Assembly (NCBI GenBank): GCA_015039365.1
Contig: WION01000168.1
Coordinates: forward strand, 50,340 to 114,339
Source: Amanita rubescens
Lineage: Eukaryota; Basidiomycota; Agaricomycetes; Agaricales; Amanitaceae
Direction: 5' to 3'
Length of the DNA: 64,000 bases
The position numbers and the translations under genes were made by a program. This document shows positions 19,990 through 55,085 of this stretch, piece after piece. Within the stretch, counting starts at the first letter, position 1; the number at the start of each line of letters is the position of its first letter. Below the pieces are notes generated by a model. The model was not told the origin of the DNA and did not search any database. It worked only from the letters and a program-made list of their open reading frames with translations.

Positions 19990-20062
19990 TGGTATTAGAT
20001 AAATGAACAGAAAATTTTAAACCTTACCGATTCAGACACATTGGTATATTCATAAATGCTGC

Positions 20063-27309: not shown

Positions 27310-27600
27310 GGATCTACGGAGGGGGGGGAAATGAGCGTGGGTGGCGGCTGTGCGTTTATTATGTTGTTCAATAAACTTATAAGGAAAGAAAGCACGTCAA
27401 ACCCAGATTGACTTGTGTGCGGCATCAATGATACTGATCGACATGGTACCTCTTCAACTGTAGCACGATAAGGAGCGTAGCTAGAGGTCAACGTTAAGAA
27501 TGAAACGCGCGACTGTGACGGCATCACGGCCATCAACGCATCAGGTTTTTAAAAAGCAAAACATGGAATTACGGCAGTCGAGTTTTGACACGACTCTGTG

Positions 27601-31841: not shown

Positions 31842-32029
31842 TGTAAACCCTTTGTGGACTCAAAGGGGAATCACTCGAGACGGAACAGGACCAGAGCGTG
31901 TTAAGAGAGAACGAGTACCTAGGTACGATGATAAGGAGAAGGAAAAGAAAGAATATCGAAGTGTATGAACTATCCGAATATATGTATGTTGATTGATTGT
32001 AGTTGTTTGTTAGTAATCGTATGATTACA
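31842..32029 (-). repeat. 3' LTR of the gypsy element
   Basis: 188 bp, identical by eye to 51643-51830. In plus orientation it begins TGTAAACCC and ends GATTACA. It is followed by the polypurine tract of the element (plus CCCTCCCCCACC at 32030-32041). Confidence 0.95.
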
Positions 32030-32149
32030 CCCTCCCCCACCGTGAAAAAGAAAGAAGGATACGTAAAAGTGCTTACACGGGTGCGTTAAAAAACCCTCGT
32101 AAGGGAAAAAGCTACCGGTGGCGGGCGAAAGGATAAGGTAAAAAAAATC

Positions 32150-34717
32150 CTAATGCCGTGATTGTCGCAACCATATATCGAGCGCTTCATTCTGTTGTAG
32201 CAGCGAGCCGGAAAGCCAGCAGTCTTCGGAAGGTGGCTGGTCTTTGAAACGAACCAAATATTGCATACCACGGCCGCGCCGACGTTCGTCGATAACTTTT
32301 GCTTCCACCGGGAATTCTTCTACGCCATCAATAATAATAGGGTCTGGCCATTCTTTAGTTCGTCCTGGGAAAAGAGAAGAATCAGATTCGTAATAAGGTA
32401 ATAATTGGGAAACGTGAAATGTGGGGAAGATGGTTGAGTTGGGTAAATCTAGAGTATAAGTTGAGAATTCGGGGTGAGCTGCTGTAATCTTGTAAGGGCC
32501 ATCGAAACGCGGCATTAGTTTAGCAACACGTTTCTCGCCTTTCGCCTTGTACTCGCGACGGTGATTATGGGTGGAGAGCCAGACACGGTCGCCGACATCA
32601 AAGACGGGGCGGAAGGGACGGTGTGAATTTGCAGCCGTTGCTTGGGCCACCTTTGCAGTTAACAAGTTATCTTGTGCCTTCAGAACGTCAACTTCCAGTT
32701 CTTTGAGTATTAGGATAGCCTCCTTTGTATCAAGGTCAGCTGTTGAGAAGGGTTTGGTGATGACCGGTGGTATGAGGCGCGGTGAGCGTCCCATCTTCAG
32801 ATGAAAGCCGCTGAATCCCGTAGAAGCATTGACGGTATTCATCATATGGAAACGGACACGGGGGAGAGCTCTGACCCAACCTTTCTGGTTTCGTTCTACG
32901 TGAAATCTTAATGCTTGGCAGAGTGTGCGGTTGGTACATTCGCTAGCGCCGTCTGTTTCTGGATGGAAAGCCGATGACATTTTGATGTCAATGCCCGTTA
33001 AGTTGTGCAGTGTGCGCCAAAAACGTGAGGCAAATTTGGTATCACGATCGCAAATAATATCCGTCGGTAATCCATGCTCGCAATACCAGTGATTGAAAAA
33101 TAGAAGTGCAATTTCTTTTGCAGTGGCATCTGTCCGGGTGGGAATAAGTAGAATTTCTGCGCCCAATCGATCCGTAATGGTCAAGATACAGTTAAACCCA
33201 TGGTCTTCGGGAAGTGGGCCGACGAAATCCATGGCAATTGAGGCGCCTCGGTGGTCAGGGACAGGTAGTGGGTGCAAGGGACCAGACGGCTTTCGTCGCG
33301 CAGCTTTGAAGCGCTGGCAGTCGGCGCAGCCAGGGACATAATACCGTGCGAGGGACGTGAACATGCCAGGCCAGAAAAAGCTATCTCGTAATGCCGCGTA
33401 TGACTTGTCGATGCCGAAGTGTCCAAGAAGGTCATGTGCCCATCGAAAGATTTGTGTGCGAATGGACGCTACGTTGGGTATGACCAATCGGTCGTTCATC
33501 CACCAAAATCCATCTTGTAATTTGAAATTAGGCATACCGTCGGCCGCTGCCGCCATTTTTAGACACCAAGGGTCAGTTTGGTATCCCGTCTTAATTTTGG
33601 AGGCAAAGGAAGGATCTGAAGTCAGTGTCAGTCGAGTTGCGCCTAAGTTTGCTCTACGTTCATGTATTGGGGGAATCGAAATCAAGGCAGCGATGACATC
33701 CATTGGTGACTTTTTTATTTGTGCCGGCGGGGCCGCTTCAATAAATGCCGTGCACGATAAGGCATCTGCTACGGTGTTTTTCTGTCCGTCAATGTAACGG
33801 ATTTCACAATCGAATTGGGACATAAATTCGGACCAGCGGCACTGGCGTCTGGATAAATCTTTTTGCGTCATAAAATTTTCCAAGGTTCGGTGGTCGGTAT
33901 AAATGATGAAATGGTTTCCCAAAAGGTCAGTACGCCAGCGTCGTAAGGCACGGATGATTGCTAATAGTTCTTTCTCATGGACTGGGTAATTTAGTTCTGC
34001 GGCCTTGAACGTCATTGAGTCAAATGCGACAGGACGGGACGTTTCCCATGTTGGGCCGAAGGAGAGCAATGCACCTGAACGTTTGTCCGAGGCATCCGTC
34101 GTGACATAGATGTTGTTTTTGTCCAAGAGATCATGATTGATGACCGTTAGACATTCACGACTGATGACAAGGCGTTTAATCTCATCAAAAGCAAACTGGT
34201 GTGTATCAGTCCATGAGGGAAATTTGCGATCACAATGCTTCTCTGTTAAAGGTGTTAAAATGGCGGTGTGATCGGCAAGCTTTGGCAGAAAATTTGCGAT
34301 GTATCGCACCAGTCCCAAAAAGGCTCGGACGTCACTTGCTGATTGCGGAACCGGCCAATCAAGGATACGGGAAACTTTCTTGTGATGTGCCTCGATCCCA
34401 CGCGTGGAGATGTGGTGGCCCAAGAAGTCGATTTCCCAACAAAAAAGGTGAGTCTTTTTGGGGTTACAGTATAGCGAGGCAGCAGCCAAGGCGCTTAGTA
34501 CCGTACGAACATTTTTTATATGTTCCTCGATAGATTCAGACCAGATGACGATGTCGTCAATGTAGACATGGCAGATGCGACCGATTAGTGGGCGTAGTGC
34601 CATGGTTACCCGACGCTGTTGCACAGAGGGACTATTCCGTGCGCCCATTGGCATAACGGTCCATTCATATAGGCCAAGTGGCGTTGTGACAGCAGTCAAT
34701 GGCATGTCGTCAGGGTG
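32150..34717 (-). CDS. Gypsy Pol, 3' part: RT (rest), RNase H, integrase, chromodomain-like tail
   Basis: Carries out reverse transcription and integration. In order from the 5' side: LHPDDMPLTAVTTPLGLYEW, FMPMG-type VMPMGARNSPSVQQRR, the catalytic YIDDIVIW, FLGHHISTRGIE, RNase H with YVTTDASDKRSGALLSFG and YTDHRTLENF, HHCC-type zinc region (HDLLGHFGIDKSY..CADCQRF), integrase core with MDFVGPLPED, CDRDTKFASRFW and FHPETDGASECTNRTL (D, D, E), and a C-terminal chromodomain-like segment (EEFPVEAKVIDERRRGRGMQ, YLVRFKD, EDCWLSGSLL). The stop is at 32150. The frame is open throughout. Its N-terminal half lies beyond an inserted DNA element (34724-35944). Insert plus target duplication is 1227 bp, a multiple of three. 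Confidence 0.95.
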   Translation of the reverse strand, partial: HPDDMPLTAVTTPLGLYEWTVMPMGARNSPSVQQRRVTMALRPLIGRICHVYIDDIVIWSESIEEHIKNVRTVLSALAAASLYCNPKKTHLFCWEIDFLGHHISTRGIEAHHKKVSRILDWPVPQSASDVRAFLGLVRYIANFLPKLADHTAILTPLTEKHCDRKFPSWTDTHQFAFDEIKRLVISRECLTVINHDLLDKNNIYVTTDASDKRSGALLSFGPTWETSRPVAFDSMTFKAAELNYPVHEKELLAIIRALRRWRTDLLGNHFIIYTDHRTLENFMTQKDLSRRQCRWSEFMSQFDCEIRYIDGQKNTVADALSCTAFIEAAPPAQIKKSPMDVIAALISIPPIHERRANLGATRLTLTSDPSFASKIKTGYQTDPWCLKMAAAADGMPNFKLQDGFWWMNDRLVIPNVASIRTQIFRWAHDLLGHFGIDKSYAALRDSFFWPGMFTSLARYYVPGCADCQRFKAARRKPSGPLHPLPVPDHRGASIAMDFVGPLPEDHGFNCILTITDRLGAEILLIPTRTDATAKEIALLFFNHWYCEHGLPTDIICDRDTKFASRFWRTLHNLTGIDIKMSSAFHPETDGASECTNRTLCQALRFHVERNQKGWVRALPRVRFHMMNTVNASTGFSGFHLKMGRSPRLIPPVITKPFSTADLDTKEAILILKELEVDVLKAQDNLLTAKVAQATAANSHRPFRPVFDVGDRVWLSTHNHRREYKAKGEKRVAKLMPRFDGPYKITAAHPEFSTYTLDLPNSTIFPTFHVSQLLPYYESDSSLFPGRTKEWPDPIIIDGVEEFPVEAKVIDERRRGRGMQYLVRFKDQPPSEDCWLSGSLLQQNEALDIWLRQSRH

Positions 34718-34723
34718 TAAACG

Positions 34724-35944
34724 TATGAGTGTCCATATCGGACAAAATTCAGTTGTATGTTGACAATAGATAGTGATCACGACGGTTCATTGTGAACCGC
34801 CGTGTACCGGCGTGAATTGCAGTGTACCGGCATGAATCGCAGTGTACCGGCGTGAATCACCCTTTGCATGCCAAACGTGAACGTGAACCATCGTGATCAC
34901 GATCAGCTGACATAATATTTCCCACAATTCGCCAAGTATCATATGTAGGGCACAAAAGAGGTTCAATAATTAGTTGTATCCGTGTAGGCGGGGCTGGTCG
35001 CATACTAGAGCGATGCAACGCGAAAGAAAGGGAGTAAAATCACTTTAATACACATTTAATCCCCGACATTCCCCTTGACCGTCATGGAGTGACAAAAAAG
35101 AGAACCACCTAAACTCCGTGCCGCCCTGCAATACGAAATGAAGAAATAAGGCTGGCCGTATGAAATTCTATGTCACTTTGTCGTACTAAGGTCTCCTCCG
35201 ACGCAAGAGCAGACTCCGAGGAATCCCTGCAACAGACAACTCGGAGGGATACATGACCCTCTCTAGGACACCTGACCCACCTCGGCTTGCTCCCTGACAC
35301 GCCCGCACCCTCCCTTCTTCTCCTGGTGTTGTCAATGAGGAGTCGCCTTAGACTTGACGAGTTTTGGGGCGGTTTTTTCGAGTGCGACTAGGGACGCAAT
35401 GAGCTCAGCATTCCGAGTCGCATGTTGTGGGGGACGGGGGTGGTGCAGTAGGCGAATTGGAGGGCGAGGTGGGATTGGAGGGGAAAGGCTTGACGGATTT
35501 CGTAATTCCAGTGTTCGAAGCTGAGCTCGTAACTCTCAGGTTCCGCCGTGTATAAGGTGCACAGGAATTGTCGGTAGTAGTCAAGGCAGCGGTAGCCTTT
35601 GTTGAATAGTTTGAACTCCTCTGCGTCACCAGTATTTGGCTCCGACTTTTGCATGATAAATCGAGCGAGCTGCGATGGTGTCGATAGTGCAGAGGGGGTA
35701 CAAACGGGTACTTTGCAGGATACGTGTGGAACAGGCTGTTTTAGCAAGGCGAGAAGGCGTGCAGGACTTTCGCTTGAGCTGAGTTGTGGGAACCTTATGT
35801 CAGCTGATCGTGATCACGATGTTTCACTGCGATTCACGCTGGTACACTGCAATTCACGCTGATTCACGCTGGTACACGCCGGTTCACAATGAACAATCGT
35901 GATTTTCAACCTGCAACGAATTTTGTCCGATACGGACCGTCATA
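34724..35944. mobile_element. 1.2-kb TIR DNA element inserted in gypsy RT, 6-bp TSD
   Basis: Ends are inverted repeats: 34724 reads TATGAGTGTCCATATCGGAC and the far end, on the other strand, TATGACGGTCCGTATCGGAC, both continuing AAAATTC. Inside, subterminal arrays of GTGTACCGGCGTGAAT(C/T)GCA occur in opposite orientation at both ends (34795-34860, 35820-35885), as do GTTCATTGTGAACC and ATCGTGATCACGATCAGCTG. The target duplication is TAAACG (34718-34723, 35945-35950). Removing the element and one duplication restores the RT codons FFQTR-LHPDD. No transposase is present, so it is non-autonomous. The superfamily is unknown; 6 bp does not fit the usual 8 bp of hAT or KDZ. Confidence 0.9.
35388..35809 (-). 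pseudogene. Open frame inside the 1.2-kb element, possibly a captured exon
   Basis: The minus-strand frame is open from about 35809 to the stop at 35388, without an early ATG. It begins just after a CATAAG acceptor-like site. It encodes SSSESPARLLALLKQPVPHV, ARFIMQKSEPNTGDAEEFKL, FNKGYRCLDYYRQFLCTLYT, EHWNYEIRQAFPLQSHLALQ. The composition is that of a folded, real protein, unlike the flanking repeats. I recognise no family. Capture of a host exon by the element is an inference. Confidence 0.4.
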
Positions 35945-36740
35945 TAAACGAGTTTGGAAGAAGGAGTCCATCATATCCATAACACCCCAAATTTTACCTT
36001 TGGCACAATCCGCAAGGATCTCGTCTACACGAGGCAGCGGATGTGAGTCAATGACGGTATTTGCATTCAATTGACGGTAATCGTTCACCCAACGTGGCAA
36101 GACGGTTGGATCTGCTTTGGGCGTTAAGAAGGCCGGCGAGGCAAACGGCGAAGAGGAGGGCCTGATACGCCCGGCATCCAAGTGACGTTGAATGAGTATA
36201 GCCCAAGCTTCTCTATATTTTTTTGGCGAAGCATAGGATCTTGTCGTGATGGTTTTTGATGGGTCTTTTAATTTAATTCTCGCGACTATATCTGTAGGGA
36301 GCTTGTCAACATGCGGGATTGGTTCAAAGATGTGTTTGAATTCTAGGCACAAGTTAGCCTCAAGCTTTTGCAGTTGGTCATCAAGCTCTAGCTTTGCAAT
36401 GACCGTGTCGATTGAGTGTCGTGTAGCTATAGCGTTTGCACCGGTTTCGTGTTTGAGTATACGGCGAGGATGACATACTTGCGCAAGCTCGGCTATAACA
36501 TTAATTTTATTGGTTTCAATTGAAGCTGGTGATGCGAATGAAGGGGTGATTTTATTCCGTTGTGATGAAACAGTATCCGACTTTAACAAATCTATGTTTG
36601 TACCTCGGACGAAACAGGTACGACTGTCATGGTCAATTACTAGTTTGTTTTTAGCTAGAAAAGGAAGGCCTAACAAAACAGGCATTTTCAACAAAGCGGA
36701 TATGAGTGCAATGACCTTTTTCGAGGTCCAGGCATTATTC
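35945..36740 (-). CDS. Gypsy Pol, 5' part: end of protease and start of RT
   Basis: Reads from the foldback boundary at 36740: KKVIALISALLKMPVLLGLP, FLAKNKLVIDHDSRTC (end of the retropepsin-like domain), a linker, then RT motifs LPTDIVARIKLKDP, RSYASPKKYREAW, GRIRPSSSPFASPAFLTPK, RWVNDYRQLNANTVIDSHPL, GVMDMMDSFFQTR. The RT continues after the 1.2-kb element at 34717. The protease DTG/DSG active site is not present: the sequence upstream is lost at the foldback insertion. The product is therefore defective in this copy. Confidence 0.9.
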
Positions 36741-39068
36741 CACCTGTTAAGCCGGCTAAATTCGCCTAATTAGCAGTGGACACCGATTGAGTGTCCAGAG
36801 CTAATTAGCGAAGTTTAAGGGCCTACGGCACACTTTCAATAACTCTGATAAATATATAGAGAGATTTTGGTTAAGTCTTTTTTCCCACAACTAAATTACC
36901 ATTTCTGGAAGGTGGGGGATATGTTTGTACATGTTATGAGATGGGAATGTGATCACAACTCAGAAACAAGGGATAATTGCCTTATTTGGTAAGGTAGCCA
37001 GATTCTAAATAAGGTAAGCAAGTCAGGATACCATTTTTGGAAGGGTGTGAGTGTGTTTGTACATGTTATGGCACAATTTCCTTTTTTGGAAAAGTGTCAA
37101 ACTTCCAAATAAGGCACAAAATGGGTCATTCAGGGTCGAATTTCCTAAAAAGGAAATGATTACATAATCTCAGGGTCAATCAATTGTGTAGCCTTGGTCA
37201 GTGGCTTTCTAAATGTGGTTGTATGACAATGTTTGGTGCTGATTTCATTGAGATATTCACTGATTGATTTTCAGGGTCAAATTTCTAAAAAAGGAAATTG
37301 ATAATGTAATGTGCGCTTTAGGATCCAGTGGCGGGTTTCCAAAAATGGAAATAGCGCACTTCGGACTTGCCATTTTGGGAAATATCTGCTCACTGTTGCT
37401 GGTGATGAGCAGAAAGAAATTGCAATATCTCCCTTAATACTGAATGTTTTTGTGGCGCGTTTTTTGGAACATCTTCCTTATATGTATATGCACCTATCCA
37501 CTATGTTAGAATGTAAAAAATGCAAGTGGTTTCTGTCAGAATGCAACATGTCTTGCTCACTGTTGACAACAGTGAGGAGCAACAAATGACAATATCTCCA
37601 TCAATACTGGTTATTTCTGTGGCGCTTTTTTTGGTATGTCCCCATTAGGGATATAGGAAGGTGTTTGGCATGTCAGAATACAAATAGTACATACCAATCA
37701 TGCCACAAATGAAATTGGTGTGCTCACTGTCTGCCATGATGAGCAGCCATATCTCCACCAAAACAAGATCTTTCTGTGGCGCTTTTTTTGATTTGGGATC
37801 ACACATAACAAAGATAAACATTGGGAGGGTCACAACAGAGGATCCCTAGGCAAGATCAAGTGGAATCTCCCATTTATCCTTACATGTCAACTTGTCAGCC
37901 ACTCTTTCTGTATCATGTTCAGTCTTTTATCATGAAACTGAAAACTACACATTAATCAGCAGGGTAATCTGCTTTCAGATACCCTGAATGACACTCTGTT
38001 ATGATAAGGAATCAGAATCCAAAAAAGTGCCACAGGAAGATCTTGTTTTGGTGGAGATATGGCTGCTCATCATGGCAGACAGTGAGCACACCAATTTCAT
38101 TTGTGGCATGATTGGTATGTACTATTTGTATTCTGACATGCCAAACACCTTCCTATATCCCTAATGGGGACATACCAAAAAAAGCGCCACAGAAATAACC
38201 AGTATTGATGGAGATATTGTCATTTGTTGCTCCTCACTGTTGTCAACAGTGAGCAAGACATGTTGCATTCTGACAGAAACCACTTGCATTTTTTACATTC
38301 TAACATAGTGGATAGGTGCATATACATATAAGGAAGATGTTCCAAAAAACGCGCCACAAAAACATTCAGTATTAAGGGAGATATTGCAATTTCTTTCTGC
38401 TCATCACCAGCAACAGTGAGCAGATATTTCCCAAAATGGCAAGTCCGAAGTGCGCTATTTCCATTTTTGGAAACCCGCCACTGGATCCTAAAGCGCACAT
38501 TACATTATCAATTTCCTTTTTTAGAAATTTGACCCTGAAAATCAATCAGTGAATATCTCAATGAAATCAGCACCAAACATTGTCATACAACCACATTTAG
38601 AAAGCCACTGACCAAGGCTACACAATTGATTGACCCTGAGATTATGTAATCATTTCCTTTTTAGGAAATTCGACCCTGAATGACCCATTTTGTGCCTTAT
38701 TTGGAAGTTTGACACTTTTCCAAAAAAGGAAATTGTGCCATAACATGTACAAACACACTCACACCCTTCCAAAAATGGTATCCTGACTTGCTTACCTTAT
38801 TTAGAATCTGGCTACCTTACCAAATAAGGCAATTATCCCTTGTTTCTGAGTTGTGATCACATTCCCATCTCATAACATGTACAAACATATCCCCCACCTT
38901 CCAGAAATGGTAATTTAGTTGTGGGAAAAAAGACTTAACCAAAATCTCTCTATATATTTATCAGAGTTATTGAAAGTGTGCCGTAGGCCCTTAAACTTCG
39001 CTAATTAGCTCTGGACACTCAATCGGTGTCCACTGCTAATTAGGCGAATTTAGCCGGCTTAACAGGTG
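36741..39068. mobile_element. Giant foldback element: 2.3-kb palindrome with KDZ-type ends
   Basis: Position x pairs with position 75809 minus x, with no length change: the two arms are 36741 to about 37795 and about 38014 to 39068 (about 1055 bp each), around a loop of about 218 bp. All stretches I compared were identical between arms, and the same 92-codon frame appears in both (37311-37589 plus, 38220-38498 minus). The ends read CACCTGTTAAGCCGGCTAAA, then CTAATTAG and GGACACCGATTGAGTGTCC, almost the same as those of the KDZ element starting at 39086. It codes for no transposase. No target duplication: the flanks are CATTATTC and CTGTCAAT. Confidence 0.95.
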
Positions 39069-39085
39069 CTGTCAATAACCGGTTC

Positions 39086-39308
39086 CACCTGTTAAGCCGG
39101 CTTAATTCGCCTAATTAGCCGAGGACACCGATCGAGTGTCCCGCGCTAATTAGCGAGCATTCCAGCTTCACCTCACACTTTGAATAAATCCACTAATTAT
39201 ATAGCAGGACTTGACAGTATTTCTCTCCTCCGACCCATTTAGGCCTTGAATCGCCAACGTCCGGGTGACGTACTTATGTAACACATCAAAAAATCGTTCC
39301 GGCGTACT
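39086..39308 (+). repeat. Left terminal inverted repeat of the KDZ element
   Basis: Pairs with 50652-50876 with a few mismatches. Contains three nested palindromes: TTAAGCCGGCTTAA, CTAATTAG (twice) and GGACAC-N7-GTGTCC. These are likely transposase-binding features (inference). Confidence 0.9.
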
Positions 39309-39390
39309 CTGCCGTGGCGTCAATTGCTCATAGATAGTGGAATCAATCAGTTACAGGCTTTGTAGAGGTATACAAAATGACCACCAGTCT

Positions 39391-42300
39391 TCACAACTCA
39401 TTCGCATATTCATCAGATGATATTTTGAGGAGTTCAAACGCCAAGTCGAAGGCCTCCTCCTCATCCTCGACATCGTCTTCTTCTTCCTCCTCTTCGTCAA
39501 CGTCATTTTCTTCAAGCTCCTCCTCTTCGTTGGTATCTGCTACATCAACACGTTCTTGACATAGATTCATAGTGGCTGGCAGTCGTATGCTTCGTCCAGG
39601 CTTTATCTGGCCTGTAAAGCCAGGAAGCTTGGCCAATTTGGCAAAACGCTGCATGTGCGTAGCGTTTGCTCTGCCTCTCTCTAGACGGTAAACGGAGATT
39701 TGATGTGCTAGACGTGGATCGTCTCCTACCAGGGATTCTTCTTTCGTCATCAAGAAAACGGTCTCGTCGACTATGTGAGTGATCAAGCGGCAGATCTCGA
39801 TGTTCAGTCTATCAATCTCTTCCCGAGCACGTTGTATCTTGAAGTATTGGTCCCGGAGCACCCTATTTATTTGCAAAGCCCACGGTTTTGAACGAACGTC
39901 CTCCCTTGTATCACGGAGAAGGTCAAAGTCAGCGAGGAACGCGTACTCGACAACATCATCCCAGGAAAGTTCCGGCGCGGGGGGGCGGCGAGCGGCAGCA
40001 GCCACGTTGTACTTCTCGAGTGCTGCCTTGATGGCTTTCGACCTCGCTTGCAGAGCCTTCGCGATATGCCGTCGCAGCTTATAACCTGATGATGTATGTT
40101 AGACCCCTACAAAGAAATTTATTATGTAGAACCCACAAATCTGCGACTTATTTAGATTCGAAAGTTCAAAAAGCCGAGACACGATCAAACCCTCGAGATT
40201 ATCAACGGCTTTTCGATACTCGCGGAGAACAGCCTTCTCTGCCGCGGCATTCCACACTGCTGAGCCTGGTACCCATCTCTGCGCTACTCCCAGTTTCAGT
40301 TCGAGCTCGTGAACTCGCTTGAGGCAGTTGTCGCGTTGCTCGATAGCATGACGACGCTTGGTTTCGACGGATCTTGTGTAGTCACGTGCATTGATAGTGC
40401 TAGGCGACGAGTTGTAGAAAATGTCTTCTTTATCGAGTTCATCTCTGAAGTTTTGGTTAGTCGGAATCCCATCATTGAAATCAAAGAGCACCTACTGGGC
40501 TTTTTGTAATCGGACAAGACTCTCGTAGTAATTGATCTCGAGACTCTCTTCCGATGGCTCTGACTTCAACCCGCTCAAATATGACTTTTCCTCGTCTAGC
40601 CACGCCTGGAAGATCGCCGGGTCCGTTATTCCACGGTTTTTCATCATTTCTAACAAGAGAGCTTCTGACTGTGAGATGTCTAGGGCTTGCTTGTAGTTGT
40701 CCACAAGAAACTTGCCTGCGACGGTCACTTAGACAAGTAAATTTTTAAAACAGTTCAGCTTACTTAAATTAGCATACGTCTCGTAATCGTCCATGTGTCG
40801 CATATATTGAACGATAGCTTGTTGCCGGTGGAAAGTGCTTGCATAGCGAACCGATGCTGCAAGCGCGTTTGACTTTGAGAAAAACCGCTCGCAACCCTCC
40901 AAGTCTTCTATGCCTAAGCCTTCGATGTACGTTGCCAAATAGGATATCTGACAAAGCCGGTCGTGTGCATGTCCATGGAAAGATCCCACGAGTGATTGGA
41001 AATTGAGTTCGGAAGCCAATTCGCCTAGTGGGCTATTCTTGACCGTCTTGAAAAACTGGCACCCATCATCAGCGGAGTATTTTTACAGTCTATGGATGGA
41101 TTGGTGGGTGGGCAGTCAGATGTCACCCATGATAAAAATAGAAAAAAGCTCCGCTGATCACAATACCTTCATAGGCGGAGTATTTTTACAGTCTATGGAT
41201 GGATTGGTGGGTGAGCAGTGAGATGTTGCCCTTGATAAAATAGAAAAAGCTCCGCCAATCACAGTACCATCATCGGCGGAGTATTTTTTGGTTGTAAGAT
41301 GTTGCCCTAGATAAAAATAGAAAAAAACTCCGCCGATCACAGTATCATCATCAGCGGAGTATTTTTACATTTTTTTGGTTGGTTGGGACACTTGGATGTC
41401 ATTGACAGTACATATGTCATGGAAAAATTACATTAAAATTATTCTAAGGGTTGGAGTACATATAATTATTAATTATGATGGGTTAGATGGGTGCATGGGT
41501 GCATGTTTAGATGTATTTGAGGGTTAATGGTGTGATGAGAGGTATTGGTGGGGTGGATGCGCTTGTCGTACCCGATGCCAATGTCACTGCCGAACGCCTG
41601 GAGGAGAAGATTGGTGATCGATAACGGGTATTTAGCACTATGTAGATGGTTAGCATGGAAAGAGAAATAAAATGGGTGCTTCCTCACAGTTCGCCGCTCT
41701 TGACCATGTCGGCCACCAGTAAAACAAAGCCATGGCGACACAGCGCCAGAAAGATTCCCGTTTCGTCGAAAATTCCCCACATGCGGGAGGTCACTTCGTC
41801 CTTCATGTTGTTCCATCTACTTGAACAGCCGGTGTTCTCACCACTGTTCTATAAACCAAATATTAATGTACAGTAAATAGTAGCGATTAGGAAAGACTCA
41901 CGGATTCCGGTCTTGCGATTTTCTTCTTAATAACGCTTTTGTCCCATTGATCAACCTCCTCACGCATTATGTAATAATCTCCGGGGGCAGTCCGTGAATC
42001 TGGAAGAGCGCAACGGCTCAGCCGCACATCGGTTTCATCTTTTGCCCCTCCATCTCTTCGCAAGCGCTTCAACGAGTTGTTGCCGTCCATTGCTATTAAC
42101 ATCTTCAGCTTGAGGTCTTTCTCATCGTGGAGCCGATATGAGCATGCCGGACACGTGTTCTTCACACGCCATAACGGCTGATCACGCCGCAAGGTCGCTA
42201 AAACCCTATGTCAAACTTTTTCAAGCACATCCAGATATAAATCGAGGGTAATCGAGAAAACCGTGTTATAATATGGTTTGTAGGGCAGCTAATGTAATGT

Positions 42301-43229
42301 AAGTTTTTGGCTTGGCTGAAAAACAAATAACGCACCCTCTGCATATCCATTAGCCCTTTTATAAATGATTGACGTGCGAGATGAGGGCAGCGGCAGAATA
42401 AATTTCGATACAGTTCAAGCAAACGAATAGAAACCGCATACGACGGGCGAAATGGGGCACACGGGATCATTCCTTGACGTACTAAAGCGGAGGCAACGAA
42501 TTCGTCGCTGTGCAGCATCGAGTATTGCGTATTGTACGTTCCTAAGATAAATCAGTGTTAAAAATGGGACAGGAAAACGTCGAAAACTTACTATGCGTGT
42601 CAAATAATATAATGTTCTCGAACCCTTCCGGCTCTTCAGCAAACGATGGAGAAACGGCGTCAGGATTGCCCTCTTCTTTCATCTGACAACTCCATCGCTC
42701 GTAGGCACCTAAGATTGCAGACATTTGCGCTGAAAACCCAGAAATACGGCGTTCCGTCCTATCCCGCCTGTTGCTGGCATCATTGTGCGCACGACCCCGC
42801 CTGGCACGATGTCAGCGAAAGCATAGTCTCCTGTCAAAATCACGTACCTCGACTTTTTCATATCTTCGTTTACCAACTCGAAAAATTCTCCGCCAGCATG
42901 GCTGAGATCTATGGCATGCGTTCCATTAAGGATATCTTCAGCCGTGGGAGGGTCGAGATCGTCGAGATCCATGGAGTCGTCCACTTCCGTCCCAAGGGCA
43001 TCACGAAAATAAGTACTTGCATTGGGCTTCAAGGGTTCTATTAAAACATTCAGTGAACAAATTACAAGAGAAGCACCGCTCAGTGCTCACCTGATTTGCG
43101 TTGTATCCTTTGGGCTTCCTTTTTGGCCAGTTCTTCTTCAACCTGTTTGCGCCCCACCGCCTGGCCATATTTTACCCCGCCTTGACTATAGTTACGGTAC
43201 TTTTTGGAAGAAATAGTACCCTTCTTCAT
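39391..43229 (-). CDS. KDZ transposase, one in-frame TGA and a disrupted segment
   Basis: Catalyses cut-and-paste transposition. Start at 43229 (MKKGTISSKKYRNYSQGGVK), donor GTGAGC at about 43090. Exons in order: HAIDLSHAGGEFFELVNEDM, SAQMSAILGAYERWSCQMKE, TYNTQYSMLHSDEFVASALV then RQGMIPCAPFRPSYAVSIRL, CRCPHLARQSFIKGLMDMQ, LPYKPYYNTVFSITLDLYLD, WRVKNTCPACSYRLHDEKDL with AMDGNNSLKR (first catalytic Asp), DSRTAPGDYYIMREEVDQW, MWGIFDETGIFLALCRHGFV, ITNLLLQAFGSDIGIGYD (second Asp), TVKNSPLGELASELNFQSLV then GSFHGHAHDRLCQ and GLGIEDLEGCERFFSKSNAL (Glu), and the C-terminal LDNLEGL-type exon to 39391. The acidic tail is EEEEE-rich. Problems: TGA at 42213-42211 where CGA (Arg) is expected, and about 500 bp of repeat sequence after GYD replacing the usual IGC. 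Confidence 0.9.
41065..41400. repeat. Short repeat array GGCGGAGTATTTTT inside the transposase gene
   Basis: Three to four copies of a unit beginning (A/G)GCGGAGTATTTTT and ending AGCTCCGC(C/T)GATCACA occur at about 41067, 41173, 41274 and 41354. Each unit is a weak inverted repeat (GCGGAG..CTCCGC). It lies between the GYD codons and the FFKTVKN exon of the transposase, so it is either within an intron or a disruption. Confidence 0.8.
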
Positions 43230-43399
43230 GATTGCTGTGCTGGCAGTTCGTCACATGCGTGACAGTGCGATATCTTATCGCCCACGTGGCACGGCAGCAG
43301 CTCCCCGATCTATCATCTGTGTTATTTCCTCCTACTTCGTTGGAATGATTTAGTGAGATCGAGACATTCTCAGACGCGGAAAGAGTCCGGCGCCCAAGC

Positions 43400-43620
43400 T
43401 TAGGCATTCCTGGGGCCAAAGAGAGCGCAAATAGACCGTAAAGAGAGGGACAAAGAGATAGCGCCCCTCTTAAGATCCCGATTCACAGAAATCCTCGCGC
43501 AATGTTTAGAAGAACATATTCGCAGGGGGTCTTTGGATGAAATTACTCGCGTTACTAGATCGCCAGAAAGTGATACAAGCTCCACCGCGCACGCTACTTC
43601 AAGTTTCTCACATCGGTATG
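43400..43620 (+). CDS. Possible exon divergent from the transposase
   Basis: The plus frame 43400-43616 encodes GPKRAQIDRKERDKEIAPLL, FTEILAQCLEEHIRRGSLDE and ITRVTRSPESDTSS and ends at a good donor GTATGT. No ATG is seen in frame. It may be an internal exon of a small gene or a remnant. Low confidence. Confidence 0.25.
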
Positions 43621-43674
43621 TCCATACTAGTTACTAACATCTGCGTGCTTAGGACTTGTCCTTATGATCGTTTC

Positions 43675-43935
43675 TCGTTACACAGGGCAAAGAACCGGAG
43701 CGCGTGTATTTCAAGTGTAGGGACGTCAATGGATGGTTGCGATCCATTGCTTGGCAGTGCGCGCGGAGTCGATCATTCGTCACGCCATCCATTCACTTCG
43801 ATCCTTATGAGCTCTTATAGATCAAAGAACCAGAGCGCGTGCAATTCAGGTGTGAGGACATCATTGGCTGGTTGCGATCCATTTGCCATGCTTGGCAGTG
43901 CGCGCGGCATTGCATTAGACATTGGAGTCAATCAT
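43675..43935. repeat. Two tandem copies of a unit of about 150 bp
   Basis: The block CAAAGAACC.GAGCGCGTG, TTGCGATCCAT, TTGGCAGTGCGCGCGG occurs at about 43688-43780 and 43835-43915. Copies are diverged. No clear role. Confidence 0.6.
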
Positions 43936-44146
43936 TCTGAGTCGTCACGCAGTGAATTGACGTACGAACTCTTATTCACATTTCGACACTGTTCGTCAGT
44001 CACTCGCCCCGCATATTATTCACGATTCTCCACACCTTGAATGTATTTCAATCCTCGTATCAGTCAGCTTTCCGGTACTTCCTGTATGGCAGTCGTCCAA
44101 TTCTGCTATCATAATCACACTTGTACACTTGTTTTGCATCTCACAT

Positions 44147-44290
44147 CAATGATGCGACAACGATACGACATTCATTGCAAAGTAAATCCTACGTTTAGCT
44201 AGTACAAACTACGTATATACAATCAATGATGCGACAACGATACGAAATAAATCCTACGTTTAGCTAGTACAAACTACGTATATACATTGA
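44147..44290. repeat. Direct repeat of about 70 bp, two copies
   Basis: TCAATGATGCGACAACGATA, then TAAATCCTACGTTTAGCTAG and TACAAACTACGTATATACA, is present twice in tandem just downstream (minus-strand sense) of the viroplasmin-like gene. May contain its 3' end. Confidence 0.75.
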
Positions 44291-44294
44291 CTAG

Positions 44295-45287
44295 TCACAC
44301 GGTGAACACTTGGCGCGATTCGGACAACCTCGCGAATTGTCGGTAGGCGCTCAGTTCATCTCCCAGTAATCGTCGAATGAGAGCATCTGGAGCGTTACCC
44401 AACGCAGCATCTGCAGCCAGTCTGCAATTTTTTACTTGATTAGTATTTCACGACTAGTGATTAAGATATACATACATTGTGTCGTAGACACCGGGGCGTT
44501 CTCCGCGTAAGACTAAATAATATCTAGGCAATTCCGCCAAGTTCAAGAACACTGCATCATCCGACAGCGTCGGGCTGCTTGACCGGCCTGAATTTGATCC
44601 TACCCCTTCGGATGGGTGCGGCGTAACGGTAGACATAGGCGCTGGGGCTGGTGCCTGGGGATCAGAAACCGGACTGTACGAGACGGTGGTGGTGGTCTCG
44701 GAGTGCACTGTAGCTTGGTGCATTCGGCGTTCAAGGAACGCGAGCCAAGCACGGTATGAAGCGTCACCCTCATCGCGAGTGCGGAAACCCTTATACACGT
44801 TGCCAGACACGCCATTTACCGACTCGTGAGCCTCGAACCTGTCAATATTGCCCGTTATTCTAGATTACTCTGAAAAAAAAACGAAATAAGCGCACCAGGC
44901 ATTAAAGACGCCACTAACACGGCCACGATAGACGACGTAGCACGCATACTGGCCTCTTTGGTTGCAGGAAGTATTTCCCAAGTATTCGAGAAGGAGTTGA
45001 TGAACTCGGTCTGTCGTTGAAAGGCTTTGCATCATTGAAGTGAGGGTGTCGGCTGTGCTTGAAGCGGGAACGGCACTTGCGATAGGGTCCCTAACTGAAC
45101 GACGAGGAGATCCTGTAATCGATGAGAGGATGTTCGTAAATAAGAAAAATGTGGCCCACCTTGATGCAACGTGCTTGCGACGGGAACAGGTTGTGCTGTA
45201 AAGCGCCAGCCCGAACGACGAGAGGTAGAACCTATAATATATGAGTAGGTTGTCAAAATGAAAAAGACGGTACTCGCGAGTTGCCAT
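44295..45287 (-). CDS. RNase H1-N/viroplasmin-like domain protein of the KDZ element
   Basis: The minus-strand exons encode an N-terminal region starting MATREYRLFHF at 45287 (start uncertain, because two introns near 45235 and 45160 are possible), then STADTLTSMMQSLSTTDRVH, YACYVVYRGRVSGVFNAW, joined after GTGCGC..CAG to FEAHESVNGVSGNVYKGFRT and EGDASYRAWLAFLERR. This is one viroplasmin/RNase H1 N-terminal-type fold signature (YVV.RGR..GVF..W ... V.G....YKGF). A Pro/Ser/Thr linker follows, then PRYYLVLRGERPGVYDT, the start of a second such domain, joined to LAADAALGNAPDALIRRLLG and ending RQVFTV at 44295. In other proteins this domain binds RNA/DNA hybrids or double-stranded RNA. A role in transposition is an inference. 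Confidence 0.65.
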
Positions 45288-45456
45288 GATAGCGAGGGAG
45301 AGAGGGAAGGAATGGGGGAGAGAGTAACGCAGGGAAGGAGAGAGTAACGCAACGTGTCGGTCAAGTTCGTTTCTCACGCACTAGTGGCTACTTGGCCGCC
45401 ATTTTTCCCATAGTCCAGTCAACTTTCTCCTCTGCGAACGACTCGTTTCCCCTCCA

Positions 45457-47969
45457 ATGAGCCACACTCGCGGGGACGAGAATATTCCTCCGGGGGACGC
45501 CTTCCCCAATGGTCAAAGTGGCTCAAATACGTCCAAGTCATTAACGGCTCGGAGTTCCGAACAGAACACGGGAACGTTCTACAGTCAAAAGTCAGCAAGA
45601 CCTATGGTAACTTCAGATATTCATACCTTTGGAATCCCACCCGCAACCTCCAGTCCTGCGCTGTCTGGACTACACACCGCTCGTTCTCAAATAGCCCCTC
45701 CTTCAATCTATCAATTATTCAGAAACTATGTTAACAATCCCGCGAGCGAACCAAGGGAGCAACGGGCGTCGAACGCAGTAACTAATGAAGCTAACCATAT
45801 CAGTACAACGTATGTCAACCGGCTCTTATTGGTGATATATTGCTTACATTCTGACTCAGCGCCGAAGCACTTAATACCCCCAATCATAGTACACAGAAAA
45901 GTGTTTCTTTTGTCTTAGAACAACCGTCTGGATCTTCGGGTGCTGCGGCGCTCAGTACTACACGGGAAAATCATGCTTTTGTCGTTCAACGAATGTCGGA
46001 ATCTTCAAGTGCTGAACAAGCAGCTTCACCTGAACAGCATCGAGAATGTGAAGGTTGTGATCGTGAAGGTTGTGATCGTGAACGGCCAATGGATATTGCG
46101 AAGGCAAAATCTGGCAATGGTGATCAGGCTCCACCGGAGAACGACGAACCAGTAAGTAATTCTTACCAAGTGCCGGCGGCAAATGATATTGATAATGTTA
46201 TTTGAAAAAGGACGATGATAATTCAGACGATGAACGTCTTGCGCTGTATATGACCCGCCTTAGGCATGAACATGAGATCTTGGGTATGGAAAATGACGCC
46301 GGGAATACCGGTCCCACGGCAACTGCGGCAGAGAGCACGTGGGTCAAACGCCAACCAACAACACTCATACAACCCATACGCCTGCGCCAGTATCGTCAAA
46401 AGACCCACGCCGAACATCAGACAGAAAAGATGAGACACGAGCGGGCTAAAGAGAACAATGAGGCCTTACAAGCAGAAGTTAAAGCGTTTCATAACCTACG
46501 CGCCAAGATGGTCAAGGAGCTTGCGGCACGATTTAAGAAAAAGGAAGAGTACATCCGCGTCTTACTATGTTCATCTTCGACTCTGAAAACGACACGTAAA
46601 CCCAACCTGAAGAATGCGATAATCCATAAGAAAGTAAAAGAGCTGAACGAAGGTTCGTGGTCCTCACGCCAGCTCGTAATTTCTGTCTTATTAATCTTTA
46701 TGCAGGTCGAGAAGAAGGCAACCGACTGAGCTTGCTTGAAGTTCAGAAGATGATTAATGTTGAGGAGATAATGCGGGAATTGACGGAGGAAGAGAAAACC
46801 GACATTCTACAGCAGCTAGAAGACCACCGTGAGCTGAAGCACAAAGGAGCGAGGGCGACAAGTATCTCCGCTGCACAAGATATGCGGTGCACCATGCAGC
46901 GTTTGACACAGGAGGTAAGCTGACGTGTCTTTAGAGTTTTTTCTCACTAATGAATAATAGGCCGACAATCTCGCATCTCGGACCGGCGCACACGTCTTTT
47001 TGTTCACAACGCGAGGGCACGTGGACGACAGGGGTATTCCGGGTTGGACGGCGACAGAAAACACGGAGGCGTTCTTTTCAGATGTTCTCAAGATCGAGGC
47101 GTGGAACCTACTGCGGAAATTTGAACAATGGGCGTGTGCAAATGACAGAAGTGGGTCCACTTCTTTCGTTGTGCTTTCCAGGCTTACAATAGAGTCTAGC
47201 TGGACAGAAAGATTCGTGGCAAGGCCTGCGGACGCAATGCAGCAATTATATTCTCGGTGGTCTTAGTGAGTATTTATTGTTTTTGTATCTCCCACTTTCT
47301 GACCAGAAAATAGAATATATTGCCAACATGGATCATATATCAATGAACTACGTGAACTACGAAAAGTCAATTATACAGAAATACCGCCTGAAGCTTGTCG
47401 GCTGGCCAGACGATGTCAAGTTCACAAACCCGGCGAGTCTCACAAGCGTAGATGATTTAAGAAAACTTCGACATGCGCTGAGAACGCAAACCTGCCACTG
47501 GGTCAAACTTTCTGATCGAGAACTACGACAGCATACCGAATCAATTAAGCAACGTGAAGTATCTGGTGAATGTGTTGGCCGTAAGCGAAAGGCACGTAGC
47601 GACAAAGGGAAGTCGAGGAAGCGAGTAGCTCGCGAGCGCCCCGACAACGATCTCGATGATGGCGATGATGATGACGGAGATGGCGATTATGGCGGGGACG
47701 ACAACGACAATGACAACGACCAGTCCCCTGGTCCGTCGTCTGCCCCAGTGCCTACTCGGATGAAAACGCGTTCCAAGGGGGGCCGCCGTGGTCGCCCATT
47801 CAAGAGCAAGGAGATAATTCACTCTAGCGATGATGACGACGGAGATGGCGATGATTACACCGGGGATGACAACGACAACGACCAGTCTCCCGGTCCGTCG
47901 TCTGCCACAGCGCCTGCTCGGACGCAAACACATTCCAAGGCGGGCCGCATCCGTCGAGCAAGGAGATGA
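45457..47969 (+). CDS. KDZ-element cargo protein, coiled coil plus conserved C-domain
   Basis: Starts MSHTRGDENIPPGDAFPNGQ at 45457. Exon 1 ends near 45809 (GTATGT); exon 2 from about 45861 to 46150 (NDEP, then GTAAGT). The exon 46207-46650 has LRHEHEILGMENDAGN and a basic coiled coil (RHERAKENNEALQAEVKAFH). The next gives GREEGNRLSLLEVQKMINVE and EEEKTDILQQLEDHREL. Then, after TAATAG, ADNLASRTGAHVFLFTTRGH, GWTATENTEAFFSDVLKIEA and LLRKFEQWACAND. The last exon reads HISMNYVNYEKSIIQKYRLK, LVGWPDDVKFTNPAS, CHWVKLSDREL, followed by a lysine-rich and acidic, repeated Asp-rich tail. Two tail repeats (about 47650-47780, 47830-47945) encode DQSPGPSSA. I recall similar C-domains next to transposons in mushrooms; function unknown. 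The small exon at 47180-47260 is uncertain. Confidence 0.65.
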
Positions 47970-48082
47970 TTCACTCAGACCAGGACTGAATATGACGAAG
48001 AGGGCTAGGGTGCCCGTTACTTTTTAACTGCGTAATACTATATACTATTGCTAATACAAACATTTCGCATGGCGAAGAGGTC

Positions 48083-49644
48083 TTTACTGTCCCCCCCCTA
48101 TTCCGATCGGAGTCCGATCGGAGTCCTAGGAGTCCTATAGGAGTCACATTGGAATTTATTACAAATGAGATTACATTAACATTACAAATTTTTTGACACT
48201 ACATTTTTCAATCGGACTGGTATCGGATGAATAGGAAGCCTTCCGACGGACTCGAATAGGACATAGGACTCTAATAGGACTATTCCTATAGGACTCCGCT
48301 TTTTAATGTAGTCTTTGTAGTCTCATTTGTAATACCACCATTTGCCAAGAGTACTGTGTGACCGTGGGAAATTTTGGAAAAAAATTGTGAAAAATGCAGA
48401 AAAATCATGTAATCAGATTAGTTTGTAAATGAACATGCCAAACAATGCCAAACTCAAGTTATTTGCAAAATACTGTTTTAAACGCTTCGTGTTGAAAAAT
48501 TGAATGGCTGCCAAAAATCTGGAAAAATCCGGAAAAATCATGTGATCAGATTAGTGTGGAAATGGACATGCCAAACAATGCCAAACTCAAGATATTTGCA
48601 AAATACTGTTTTAAACACTTCATGTTGAAAATTTGAAAGGCTGCTAAAAATCTTGAAAAATCTGGAAAAATCATGTGATCAAGATGGTGCAAGAATCATG
48701 CTCCAGAACAGAGCCTTTGAAACCCAAGATATTTGTAATTAATTCTTCAGATATAATGGAGAGAAATTTGATAGGTTGCCAAAACATCTTGTGACTTTGT
48801 CCAAGGGCCCCTGGTCACATTGATAAGACAAACCACTGGAGGTGTGGGGTCAGGGAAACTTCAAACATATTAGGTAAAACAATAGAATATCATAGTCTTA
48901 GGTTTGAGGCAATTCTGGAACAGAGCATGGACAACAAAGTTATAGTATAACTACTAGTAAAGGTGAGACTGACTGATATTGGCCTATAGGGCACTGTACC
49001 TAACTTCAAATTACTAATAGTACTTGTGATTGGAGGTAGCTGATAATGATCATGATAGTAGGACACTCAGTGTGGCAGGGCACAGGTGCCAGATAGTGTT
49101 GCCATTGTGATTGGAACTTTGGAAGTTGATACTAATTACATGATGTCACTGAGCCACCATTCTGTTACTAATAGTATTGACTCCCACATTATGCATGCCT
49201 GATTAGTTTTGGAAGTGACAGGCCCTCTTATGTATCTCTACTTACTCATCAAGTTATCTATCATTGTCCACACTTTGTTCAATTTCTGTCTGAAACATCC
49301 AAAGACTCTATCCTACTATTGTATTAGCACTCGTCATATCATCATTCTCTTAGTATTTGAGTTAACCATTGCTGAGTTAACTTTGCCACATGCTTCTAGT
49401 GTGGAAGCTTAGTACATCAACTAACACAGCAAAAGTCTGATCATAGCCTTGTCTGATGTTGTCTGATGCTTAAGTGTCTCTCACTGCTCAGATGGTTAGA
49501 CAGTCAGACAAGTCAGACAACTTATGAAACACTGTCTGTCAGACAGTCAGATAATCAGTGTGTCAGCATCTGTCAGTGCCTGTTAGATAGTCAGACAACC
49601 AGATAATTAGTGCATTAACATCTGTCAGTGCCTGTCAGATAGTC

Positions 49645-49681
<37 letters not shown>

Positions 49682-50650
49682 GTCAGACAGACAGTCAGAC
49701 AGACAGACAGACAGACAGACAGTCAGACAGTCAGACAATTATTAATATGGTTCTAACAACCACAACTCACTGTGTACCCGGCATCACCAAATAACCAAGA
49801 ACTCATCTCCACCTGCTTTCACCCCTTGACTTCAATACATACATAATCACAAATCCCTCATATTTACCTATGACAATTATAGGTGATTGGTGGTCATTGG
49901 TTGTTGCTGGCAACAAACATGTGGGATTGTGGAACTAAAACTAGATCATCACTTCAACACTCTGCACTGCACCCCCAGCAGCCACTGCCATGTGCATGTT
50001 GCCAATGTCCTTGACCTCAGCAGCCTCTACTCACCACTCAAGTCACATTACTGAAACTGACTTTCACCACTGCCAGCCCTTTCTAACTGATCACACATAT
50101 GTACTACATTGATCATCACCAGCCAGACATACCCAAATTGTGTTGGGTTCAACTATGGCTTTGCAGGTGGTCACATGGAGTGGTGATACATTCTTTTACA
50201 TTTACCTAGAATTTGGCTCAGATTTGTGTCCTAATTCTTGCATGACCTTGTGTGCATTTTTCAAGATCACACTTGCATCTGAAAAGTATTTTGCAAATAT
50301 GTCAAGTTTGCCATTGTTTGGTTTTATAATTCTTAGATAACCTGGATCACATGAATTTTCCGCATTTTTTCAGTATTTTTTTGAATTTATTCTGCAAGTT
50401 AAAGATGCCTAATACAAATAAACATAAATAAACAATGCCAAACATCATTCACTATTTTTAAGGATTTTGGATTTCTTTTGCAAGTTAAAGATGCCTAATA
50501 TAAATAAACATAAACAAACAATGCCAAACATGTTTCCTACCATTTTACATTTTTTTACATTTTATCAGAAAGTGATCAGAGTCCTATAGGAGTCCTATAG
50601 GAGTCATAGGAGTCTGTCGGAGTCTAATCGGACTGGGGGGGGAGTGTAAA
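48083..50650. mobile_element. Inner noncoding TIR element, poly-C ends, inside the KDZ element
   Basis: Left end TTTACTGTCCCCCCCC (48083) and right end, on the other strand, TTTACACTCCCCCCCC (50650). Both are followed by GGAGTCC/ACTCC-rich blocks (48100-48145; 50575-50635) and by diverged inverted blocks: CAAACAATGCCAAAC, AT.TTTGCAAAATACT and CATGTGATC occur on plus at 48430-48680 and inverted at 50265-50370. Three tandem units of about 125 bp lie at 48366-48720. No transposase and no clear target duplication. A third copy of the terminus is at 63208. Confidence 0.7.
49641..49737. repeat. (CAGA)n microsatellite
   Basis: A run of GACA tetranucleotides with occasional GTCA interruptions. It is preceded from 49480 by less regular GTCAGACA sequence. 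Confidence 0.95.
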
Positions 50651-50651
50651 G

Positions 50652-50876
50652 TACTGTGGCGGAACGATTTTTTGATGTGTTACGTAAGTTAAGTCACACG
50701 GACATTGGCCATTCAAGGCCTAAATGGGTCGGAGGAGAGAAATACTGTCAAGTCCTGCTATATAATTAATGGATTTATTCAAAGTGTGAGGTGAAGCCGG
50801 AATGCTCGCTAATTAGCGCGGGACACTCAATCGGTGTCCCTGGCTAATTAGGCGAATTAAGCCGGCTTAACAGGTG
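50652..50876 (-). repeat. Right terminal inverted repeat of the KDZ element
   Basis: Inverted copy of 39086-39308. It ends CAGGTG at 50876 next to the target duplication ACCGGTTC. Confidence 0.9.
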
Positions 50877-51564: not shown

Positions 51565-51642
51565 AACGTAACAAGGAGACCGGTAGGGACCGGGGATTTC
51601 GAGAGTCGAGAGTCAACGCGCAAGTTGCTGTTCAAAAAAAAG

Positions 51643-51830
51643 TGTAAACCCTTTGTGGACTCAAAGGGGAATCACTCGAGACGGAACAGGACCAGAGCGT
51701 GTTAAGAGAGAACGAGTACCTAGGTACGATGATAAGGAGAAGGAAAAGAAAGAATATCGAAGTGTATGAACTATCCGAATATATGTATGTTGATTGATTG
51801 TAGTTGTTTGTTAGTAATCGTATGATTACA
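51643..51830 (-). repeat. 5' LTR of the gypsy element
   Basis: 188 bp, identical by eye to the 3' LTR at 31842-32029. Flanked on the outside by CAAAT. The sequence inside the element next to the LTR (CTTTTTTTTGAACAGC on minus) is not a standard TGG-type primer site. Confidence 0.95.
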
Positions 51831-55084: not shown

Positions 55085-55085
55085 A

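What the first reader, a model, noticed from the sequence alone, without database searches (positions are those of the whole stretch)
36741..39068. A 2.3-kb near-perfect palindrome that shares KDZ termini
Arms of about 1055 bp pair without length change (x with 75809-x) around a loop of about 218 bp, and no differences were seen in the stretches compared. The outer ends match those of the KDZ element. It looks like a non-autonomous foldback derivative mobilised by a KDZ transposase, an arrangement I do not know to be described. Such a palindrome should be unstable, so near-identity of the arms suggests youth or ongoing conversion.
Basis: partly seen in the sequence, partly recalled or inferred. 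Interest (0 to 1): 0.78.

Follow-up and report, generated by a model that had tools for sequence, protein, structure and literature searches.

The report
Palindromic transposons riding KDZ ends
In this mushroom-type fungus a family of gene-less, mirror-image jumping DNA pieces carries the same end signals as several KDZ transposons, and its two halves have been made identical again and again, so the family seems able to swap which helper transposon moves it.

Summary
The palindrome is real: window 36741-39068, arms of 1053 bp (3 mismatches, all within 21 bp of the loop), loop 222 bp. It is one copy of a dispersed family in a 75.7-Mb genome: a 22-base loop tag occurs 111 times (reversed-pattern control 0). 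Of 33 insertions whose both flanks I read, 29 have identical 8-bp duplications. The outer ~119 bp match KDZ transposons. A 16-base end occurs 97 times (control 0) in 44 convergent pairs: 36 classed as palindromes, 7 with a KDZ transposase, 1 complex. Four palindrome subfamilies match different KDZ lineages best (A only narrowly), yet share inner arms and loop. The body is not a KDZ deletion derivative. The window copy has no duplication: it replaces exactly 889 bp of a Gypsy element. Youth alone does not explain arm identity: arms differ by 0-2.1% within 23 of 27 copies (about 6% in the other four) but 9.5-30% between subfamilies. One copy (C451) carries one arm's states at both ends. Homogenisation is episodic, since some copies transposed with ~6% different arms. 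Closest precedent: Galileo/foldback elements. KDZ action in trans is inferred.

The parts
36741..37793 (+). left arm of the palindrome (1053 bp)
37794..38015. 222-bp loop; 95-100% identical in the 40 places scored of 125 candidates, 91.7% in type D
38016..39068 (-). right arm (1053 bp), 3 mismatches to the left arm, all within 21 bp of the loop
36741..36859 (+). KDZ-like terminal module (~119 bp), left
38950..39068 (-). KDZ-like terminal module (~119 bp), right
37324..38485 (.). core shared by the representatives of subfamilies A-F: inner arm, loop, inner arm (element positions 584-1745)
36733..36740 (+). left flanking 8-mer CATTATTC (no match on the right side)
39069..39076 (+). right flanking 8-mer CTGTCAAT; in two Gypsy copies without the palindrome it lies 889 bp from the left flank
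39086..50876 (-). KDZ transposon, inserted 17 bp from the palindrome
39078..39085 (+). 8-bp target duplication ACCGGTTC of the KDZ element, left copy
50877..50884 (+). 8-bp target duplication ACCGGTTC of the KDZ element, right copy
40732..41082 (-). KDZ transposase domain (PF18758) fragment
   Evidence: E 2.1e-34
42198..42551 (-). CxC1-like cysteine cluster (PF18802, E 8.2e-5, below the curated cut-off)
31842..51830 (-). Gypsy-type LTR element hosting both insertions; LTR alignment 98.5% identical over 199 bp; apparent 5-bp duplication CAAAT

Best explanation
A large family of non-autonomous foldback transposons made of KDZ-type ends (~119 bp) on a non-coding palindromic body. Shown: common ends with KDZ-transposase elements, mostly 8-bp duplications, subfamily-specific matching of ends to different KDZ lineages, a shared core, and arms that were made alike within copies after the subfamilies separated. 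Inferred: KDZ transposases from full elements cut and paste the palindromes in trans. Independently of transposition, one arm is occasionally rewritten from the other arm or from another copy (conversion or fold-back copying of one half, probably during break repair). That restores symmetry and lets a new end module, taken up on one arm, spread to both ends, so the family can change its KDZ helper.
For: 97 matches to the 16-base end, reversed-pattern control 0, in 44 convergent pairs: 36 classed as palindromes (28 of the 34 short ones read in sequence), 7 KDZ-transposase elements of 8.5-12.9 kb, 1 complex 27-kb nest. 8-bp duplications in 24 of 26 copies, 3 of 4, 0 of 1, 1 of 1 (C451:96380), 1 of 1 (split palindrome in C504). 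KDZ homology stops at 70-119 bp in the 11 KDZ end sequences tested; best partners are A for KDZ C13a (83%, with C close behind at 82%), B for KDZ C157/C13b/C504/C704 (81-82%), C for KDZ C77/C715 (86-91%), F for KDZ C95 (90% over 70 bp). Within-copy arm difference median 0.57%, mean 1.37% over 27 copies; between subfamilies mean 15.6%, minimum 9.5%. Between representatives of A-F mean differences fall from 39% (ends) to 22.5-23% (outer arm) to 6.5-8% (inner arms, loop), nearly the same on both sides. C451: at 52 sites where the F arms differ, its two ends agree at all 52, with one arm's state at 47.
Against: Transposition or excision by KDZ is not shown. Three F copies, two of them with matching duplications, keep 5.6-6.0% arm difference, so homogenisation is neither constant nor tied to transposition. 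The same-copy partner is the closest arm for only 30 of 54 arms. Private variants on both arms against one arm number 156 v 68 in 22 copies, but 132 and 53 of these come from D and E; the other 20 copies give 24 v 15, and 14 of those 24 come from one copy. 4 of 33 insertions read lack duplications. KDZ elements with D- or E-type ends were not searched for. The A-lineage match is only narrowly the best.
Confidence: 0.8

Rival explanations
1. Each subfamily arose independently as a fresh inverted duplication behind a KDZ end, with no later homogenisation of arms.
For: F-type to C451 shows that new palindromes can be made by mirroring one half.
Against: In the A-F representatives the loop and inner arms are the same sequence at the symmetry centre, so the architecture predates the split in ends and outer arms. 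Unit-number forms of type B run 2368, 2524/2525, 2682, 2838 bp; C146b has 2 v 1 and C65 2 v 3 copies of the arm tag, as expected if one arm changes first and the other follows.
Confidence: 0.08
2. The palindromes are moved by another 8-bp-duplicating transposase (for example hAT) and the KDZ resemblance is convergent.
For: hAT elements usually also make 8-bp duplications (PMC12730594, passage seen).
Against: The end match is up to 119 bp long and lineage-specific, and the 7 simple non-palindromic pairs of this end each contain a KDZ domain.
Confidence: 0.04
3. The palindrome is kept symmetric because it works as a long hairpin RNA locus (a Dicer substrate) that silences KDZ ends.
For: A ~1-kb arm and 222-b loop would form long double-stranded RNA if transcribed; core and loop are the best-conserved parts.
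Against: No transcription data; the loop alone folds about as well as shuffles (z -0.5 and -1.2); no Rfam family over its gathering score; two loop-less copies are also inserted at different sites.
Confidence: 0.07
4. Assembly or sequencing fold-back artefact.
For: Long palindromes are a known error type (recalled); raw reads were not available.
Against: Dispersed copies bounded by the same ends, 29 of 33 with site-specific duplications; a clean 889-bp replacement against two Gypsy copies.
Confidence: 0.01

Closest known systems
Galileo 2-TIR and recombinant-TIR elements (P superfamily, Drosophila; PMC3573991, passages and the first part of the Discussion seen)
   Same: Gene-less elements that are almost all terminal inverted repeat, with tandem units inside; 98-100% identity between the two TIRs of a copy; chimeric copies; TIR extension by mirrored internal sequence; several subfamilies in one genome.
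   Different: KDZ ends, not P; here KDZ elements share only ~119 bp with the arms, whereas the paper calls long TIRs Galileo's most characteristic feature; different ends sit symmetrically on one shared core; one chimeric copy here (C168:357962) has matching duplications, whereas the paper's 12 chimeras have non-matching flanks.
KDZ elements KDZ1-KDZ3 of Cryptococcus (PMC12810828, passages seen)
   Same: 8-bp (4-8) duplications, TIRs of 139-241 bp, KDZ plus CxC1 transposase.
   Different: Those are transposase-encoding elements of about 9-11 kb; the passages seen mention no palindromic relatives.
Classical foldback elements (Drosophila FB, Tetris, Tm1; from search listings and recall)
   Same: Long, internally repetitive inverted repeats filling most of the element.
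   Different: In the searches I found none assigned to KDZ.

Membership tests
KDZ superfamily (as non-autonomous member) | 8-bp target duplication | tested here: met
   29 of 33 insertions read; window KDZ ACCGGTTC, C157 KDZ CAAAAAAG. The window palindrome itself lacks one.
KDZ superfamily (as non-autonomous member) | terminal inverted repeats shared with KDZ-transposase elements | tested here: met
   best partners 81-91% over 116-119 bp for types A, B, C; 90% over 70 bp for F; for D and E no KDZ partner was searched for
KDZ superfamily (as non-autonomous member) | mobilised by a KDZ transposase | not testable with these tools
   inferred from ends and duplications only
KDZ internal-deletion derivative | body derived from the autonomous element | tested here: not met
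   no homology beyond ~119 bp in 11 KDZ end sequences of 260-500 bp nor in the window's KDZ interior; interiors of other KDZ elements were not read
Foldback elements | long, internally repetitive inverted repeats making up most of the element | tested here: met
   arms 1053 of 2328 bp on each side; degenerate ~167-bp units
Galileo | P-superfamily transposase and ends | tested here: not met
   ends shared with KDZ elements
MITE | short, usually under 600 bp (PMC3573991) | tested here: not met
   1.9-2.9 kb for the uninterrupted copies

The most novel reading that the evidence does not exclude
The palindromic form is itself the adaptation: because either half can be rewritten from the other, a foreign KDZ end acquired on one side is copied to the other side, so a gene-less parasite can hop between helper transposase lineages as each is silenced or dies, while its core stays the same.
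Probability: 0.4. Interest if true: 0.8.

Novelty: new variant of a known kind. Interest (0 to 1): 0.62.

Why it matters
Foldback elements are old and poorly explained. This genome holds dozens of natural palindromes, many with near-identical arms, together with what look like intermediate states (asymmetric, one-arm exchanged, mirrored, loop-less), so it could show how symmetry is kept and how a non-autonomous element changes helper. It would add KDZ, a common but little studied transposon group of mushrooms, to the groups with foldback riders. The palindromes may also mark deletions, as the 889-bp loss here shows.

Tried and rejected
Loop as structured or known RNA: folding about as good as shuffles; Rfam gave 4 hits, all below gathering score. 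The two best (39041-39112) are just the facing palindrome and KDZ ends; the other two (E 0.82) are mirror positions in the arms.

Coding capacity: none seen; longest Met-started ORF 58 aa.

TTCC-N-GGAA motif as a shared secondary transposase site: 1-5 per arm in six palindrome types (single-base shuffles, mean 0.06-0.07) but 0 in 11 KDZ ends, so not supported as a KDZ site.

Second duplication-less copy (C224): its flanks belong to two different repeats, so no empty site could be read; unresolved. The other two such copies (C495, C385) were not followed.

C504 'giant' palindrome of 60.9 kb: an LTR-like insertion (266-bp direct repeats, 96.6%) in the loop with nested material, not a new structure; its outer flanks are the duplication ATATGGCA.

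Single-arm sites as possible progenitors: C385 turned out to be a full E palindrome, C49:46099 another palindrome (arms 99.3%, ends outside the stretch read), and C157:101410 a palindrome cut by the KDZ at C157:90650-101409. No progenitor of the body was found.

Organism: not named; the Gypsy relatives that carry names among the 120 listed are agaricomycetes (Ganoderma, Lentinula, Bondarzewia and others), 53-58% identical; the best hit (89%) has no name.

Rows dropped: C759, C640, C134 (same sites as C167, C153) and the C168 chimera were left out. C201 (contig end) and C65 (locus cut short) were left out. Truncated D copies (C30, C515, C157:38 kb) and fragments (C168:267 kb, C49:46 kb, C157:101 kb) are in no duplication count. 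Of the 34 pairs under 6 kb I read 28; C86, two in C629, C359, C321 and C451:96380 (ends only) were classed by loop matches and, where listed, arm tags. C2 (11.4 kb) was also classed by tags. The pairing script used a hand-copied list of the ends, of the 40 loops and a selection of the KDZ hits.

Full report
OBSERVATION. At the pairing x with 75809-x, 1087 of 1164 positions match; the 19 other offsets tested give 264-367. Arms are 36741-37793 and 38016-39068, with three mismatches at arm positions 1033, 1041 and 1049. The loop is 222 bp. No open reading frame from a Met exceeds 58 aa, and the arm has 39% G+C against 47% for the window.

SETTING. The palindrome and a KDZ transposon both sit inside a Gypsy-type LTR element on the minus strand. 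Its LTRs lie at about 31842-32029 and 51643-51830 (alignment 98.5% over 199 bp, apparent duplication CAAAT). The KDZ element is 39086-50876 with ACCGGTTC on both sides. It holds a KDZ domain fragment (E 2.1e-34) and a weak CxC1 match below its cut-off (genome-wide search). It is inserted 17 bp from the palindrome.

A DISPERSED FAMILY. The left arm finds 46 matches in the 40 candidates scored of 274, so that search gives lower bounds. A 22-base loop tag with up to one mismatch occurs 111 times and a 29-base arm tag 167 times (100 of each listed); both reversed-pattern controls are 0. I read both ends and flanks of 26 copies (24 with identical 8-bp duplications; the window copy and C224 without), 4 (3 with, C495 without), one (C385, without), one (C451:96380, with) and one (C504, with): 29 of 33. 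C153/C134 share a site, as do C759/C167/C640, so this is 26 of 30 distinct sites.

THE ENDS ARE KDZ ENDS. The 16-base end CACCTGTTAAGCYRGC occurs 97 times, control 0. Nested pairing of convergent ends gives 44 pairs. Seven, of 8.5-12.9 kb, contain a KDZ transposase hit. Thirty-four, of 1.9-5.3 kb, are palindromes or palindrome-derived (28 read, 6 classed by tags or ends). Two larger ones (C2, 11.4 kb, by tags; C504, 60.9 kb, read at both ends) are palindromes with insertions. One 27-kb pair is a nest holding both. Nine ends are unpaired. I saw no ordinary deletion derivative among these pairs. Homology between palindromes and KDZ ends stops at 70-119 bp in the 11 KDZ end sequences examined. 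The best partners differ by subfamily: A for the KDZ of C13:8217 (83%, but C is at 82%), B for those of C157, C13:127878, C504 and C704 (81-82%), C for those of the window and C715 (86-91%), F for that of C95 (90% over 70 bp). Types D (CACCTACCCAGC) and E (CACCTGATCAGC) have other ends; I did not search for their KDZ partners.

MODULES. Six subfamily representatives share loop and inner arms (mean pairwise difference 6.5-8.0%) but differ in the outer arm (22.5-23.0%) and end (39%), nearly equally on the left and right. Between A and B the change is a step: 10-28% per 100 columns in the outer ~500 bp of both arms, 0-5% across the inner arms and loop (similar). Such a symmetric mosaic needs the same replacement on both arms.

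ARMS ARE HOMOGENISED, EPISODICALLY. Among 27 copies the two arms of a copy differ by 0-2.1% in 23; the other four are E_C289 (6.2%) and three F copies (5.6-6.0%). Arms of different subfamilies differ by 9.5-30%. Variants private to a copy are on both arms 156 times and on one arm 68 times among 22 copies; D and E contribute 132 and 53, the other 20 copies 24 and 15, with 14 of the 24 in one copy. Results against constant homogenisation: the three F copies (C693, C34, C495) keep the same two diverged arms, two of them with their own matching duplications. C157/C87 and C113/C18 likewise share inherited asymmetries at different sites. Only 30 of 54 arms have their own partner as nearest relative. 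So transposition copies the asymmetry; resetting is a separate, rarer event.

INTERMEDIATES. (i) One-arm states: type-B C146b has two copies of the arm tag on one side and one on the other; C65 has two and three. The length ladder is 2368, 2524/2525, 2682, 2838 bp, and C662 has the extra unit on both arms. (ii) One-arm exchange: in E_C289, 61 of 64 left/right differences have the E_C385 state on the right arm. C168:357962 joins an A arm to another type (85% arm identity) with matching duplications. (iii) Mirroring: C451:212050-214976 has two inverted loops and 99.7% arms of 1279 bp. At 52 sites that separate the two F arms, its ends agree at all 52, with one arm's state at 47 and the other's at 4. 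It is what results if one half including the loop is copied over the other. (iv) Loop-less palindromes of 2101 bp exist at two sites with different duplications (C113, C18).

THE WINDOW COPY. Its flanks CATTATTC and CTGTCAAT differ. Four other Gypsy copies (C399, C8, C223, C104) have both flanks at the same 906-bp spacing by coordinates. In the two that I read (C399, C8) there is no palindrome between them, and the two flanks, adjacent to the palindrome in the window, are separated by 889 bp of Gypsy sequence. So this palindrome replaces exactly 889 bp of its host, with breakpoints at its own first and last base. Two palindromes inserted 889 bp apart and recombined, with loss of the middle, would give this; so would an aberrant transposition using one end. 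I favour the first but cannot separate them.

MECHANISM. Shown: family, ends, duplications, lineage-specific ends, shared core, arm homogenisation, a mirrored copy, a deletion. Inferred: KDZ transposases act in trans; homogenisation occurs by conversion or fold-back copying during break repair; a new end taken up on one arm and copied to the other changes the helper. The direction and timing of end swaps are not shown.

COMPARISON AND NOVELTY. Galileo in Drosophila is the closest precedent: 2-TIR elements, 98-100% within-copy TIR identity, chimeras, TIR extension (PMC3573991: passages, first part of the Discussion; PMC4168063: passages). KDZ facts come from passages of PMC12810828 and PMC12730594; PMC8290104 was seen in passages only. 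Searches for KDZ with foldback (0 papers), with palindromic plus non-autonomous (2 papers; the passages of both seen report no such element) and with MITE (1 paper, listing only), and the wider searches (listings), showed no KDZ foldback family in this open-licence library. Subscription papers and Repbase were not searched. I rate it a new variant of a known kind.

Noticed in passing
window 54688-57313: Direct repeats of 397 bp (54688-55084 and 56917-57313, 98.5%) flank most of a 534-aa ORF (55408-57012) without Pfam match: possibly a small LTR-like element with an unknown protein.
   Followed up: no
window 19786-28872: Three direct blocks of about 1.6-1.7 kb, 73-77% alike (19786-21496, 22511-24077, 25753-27400), with further paired repeats up to 87%: an old tandem duplication.
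   Followed up: no
window 59325-62987: Copia-type gag and pol ORFs.
   Followed up: no
L017/L018 (C504:43.6-102.3 kb): LTR-like element (266-bp direct repeats) with nested KDZ material inserted in the loop of a palindrome.
   Followed up: partly
L096 (C157:101410): A KDZ element (duplication CAAAAAAG) inserted inside an E-type palindrome arm; with the window this makes two KDZ insertions in or next to palindromes.
   Followed up: partly
palindrome arms, e.g. window 36741-37793: Repeated short palindromic motif TTCC-N6-GGAA in the arms (1-5 per arm in six types, shuffle mean 0.06-0.07), absent from 11 KDZ ends; meaning unknown.
   Followed up: partly
L028 2581-2722: The right flank of C224 starts at the edge of a ~140-bp dispersed repeat that also occurs elsewhere with the same or nearly the same edge.
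   Followed up: no
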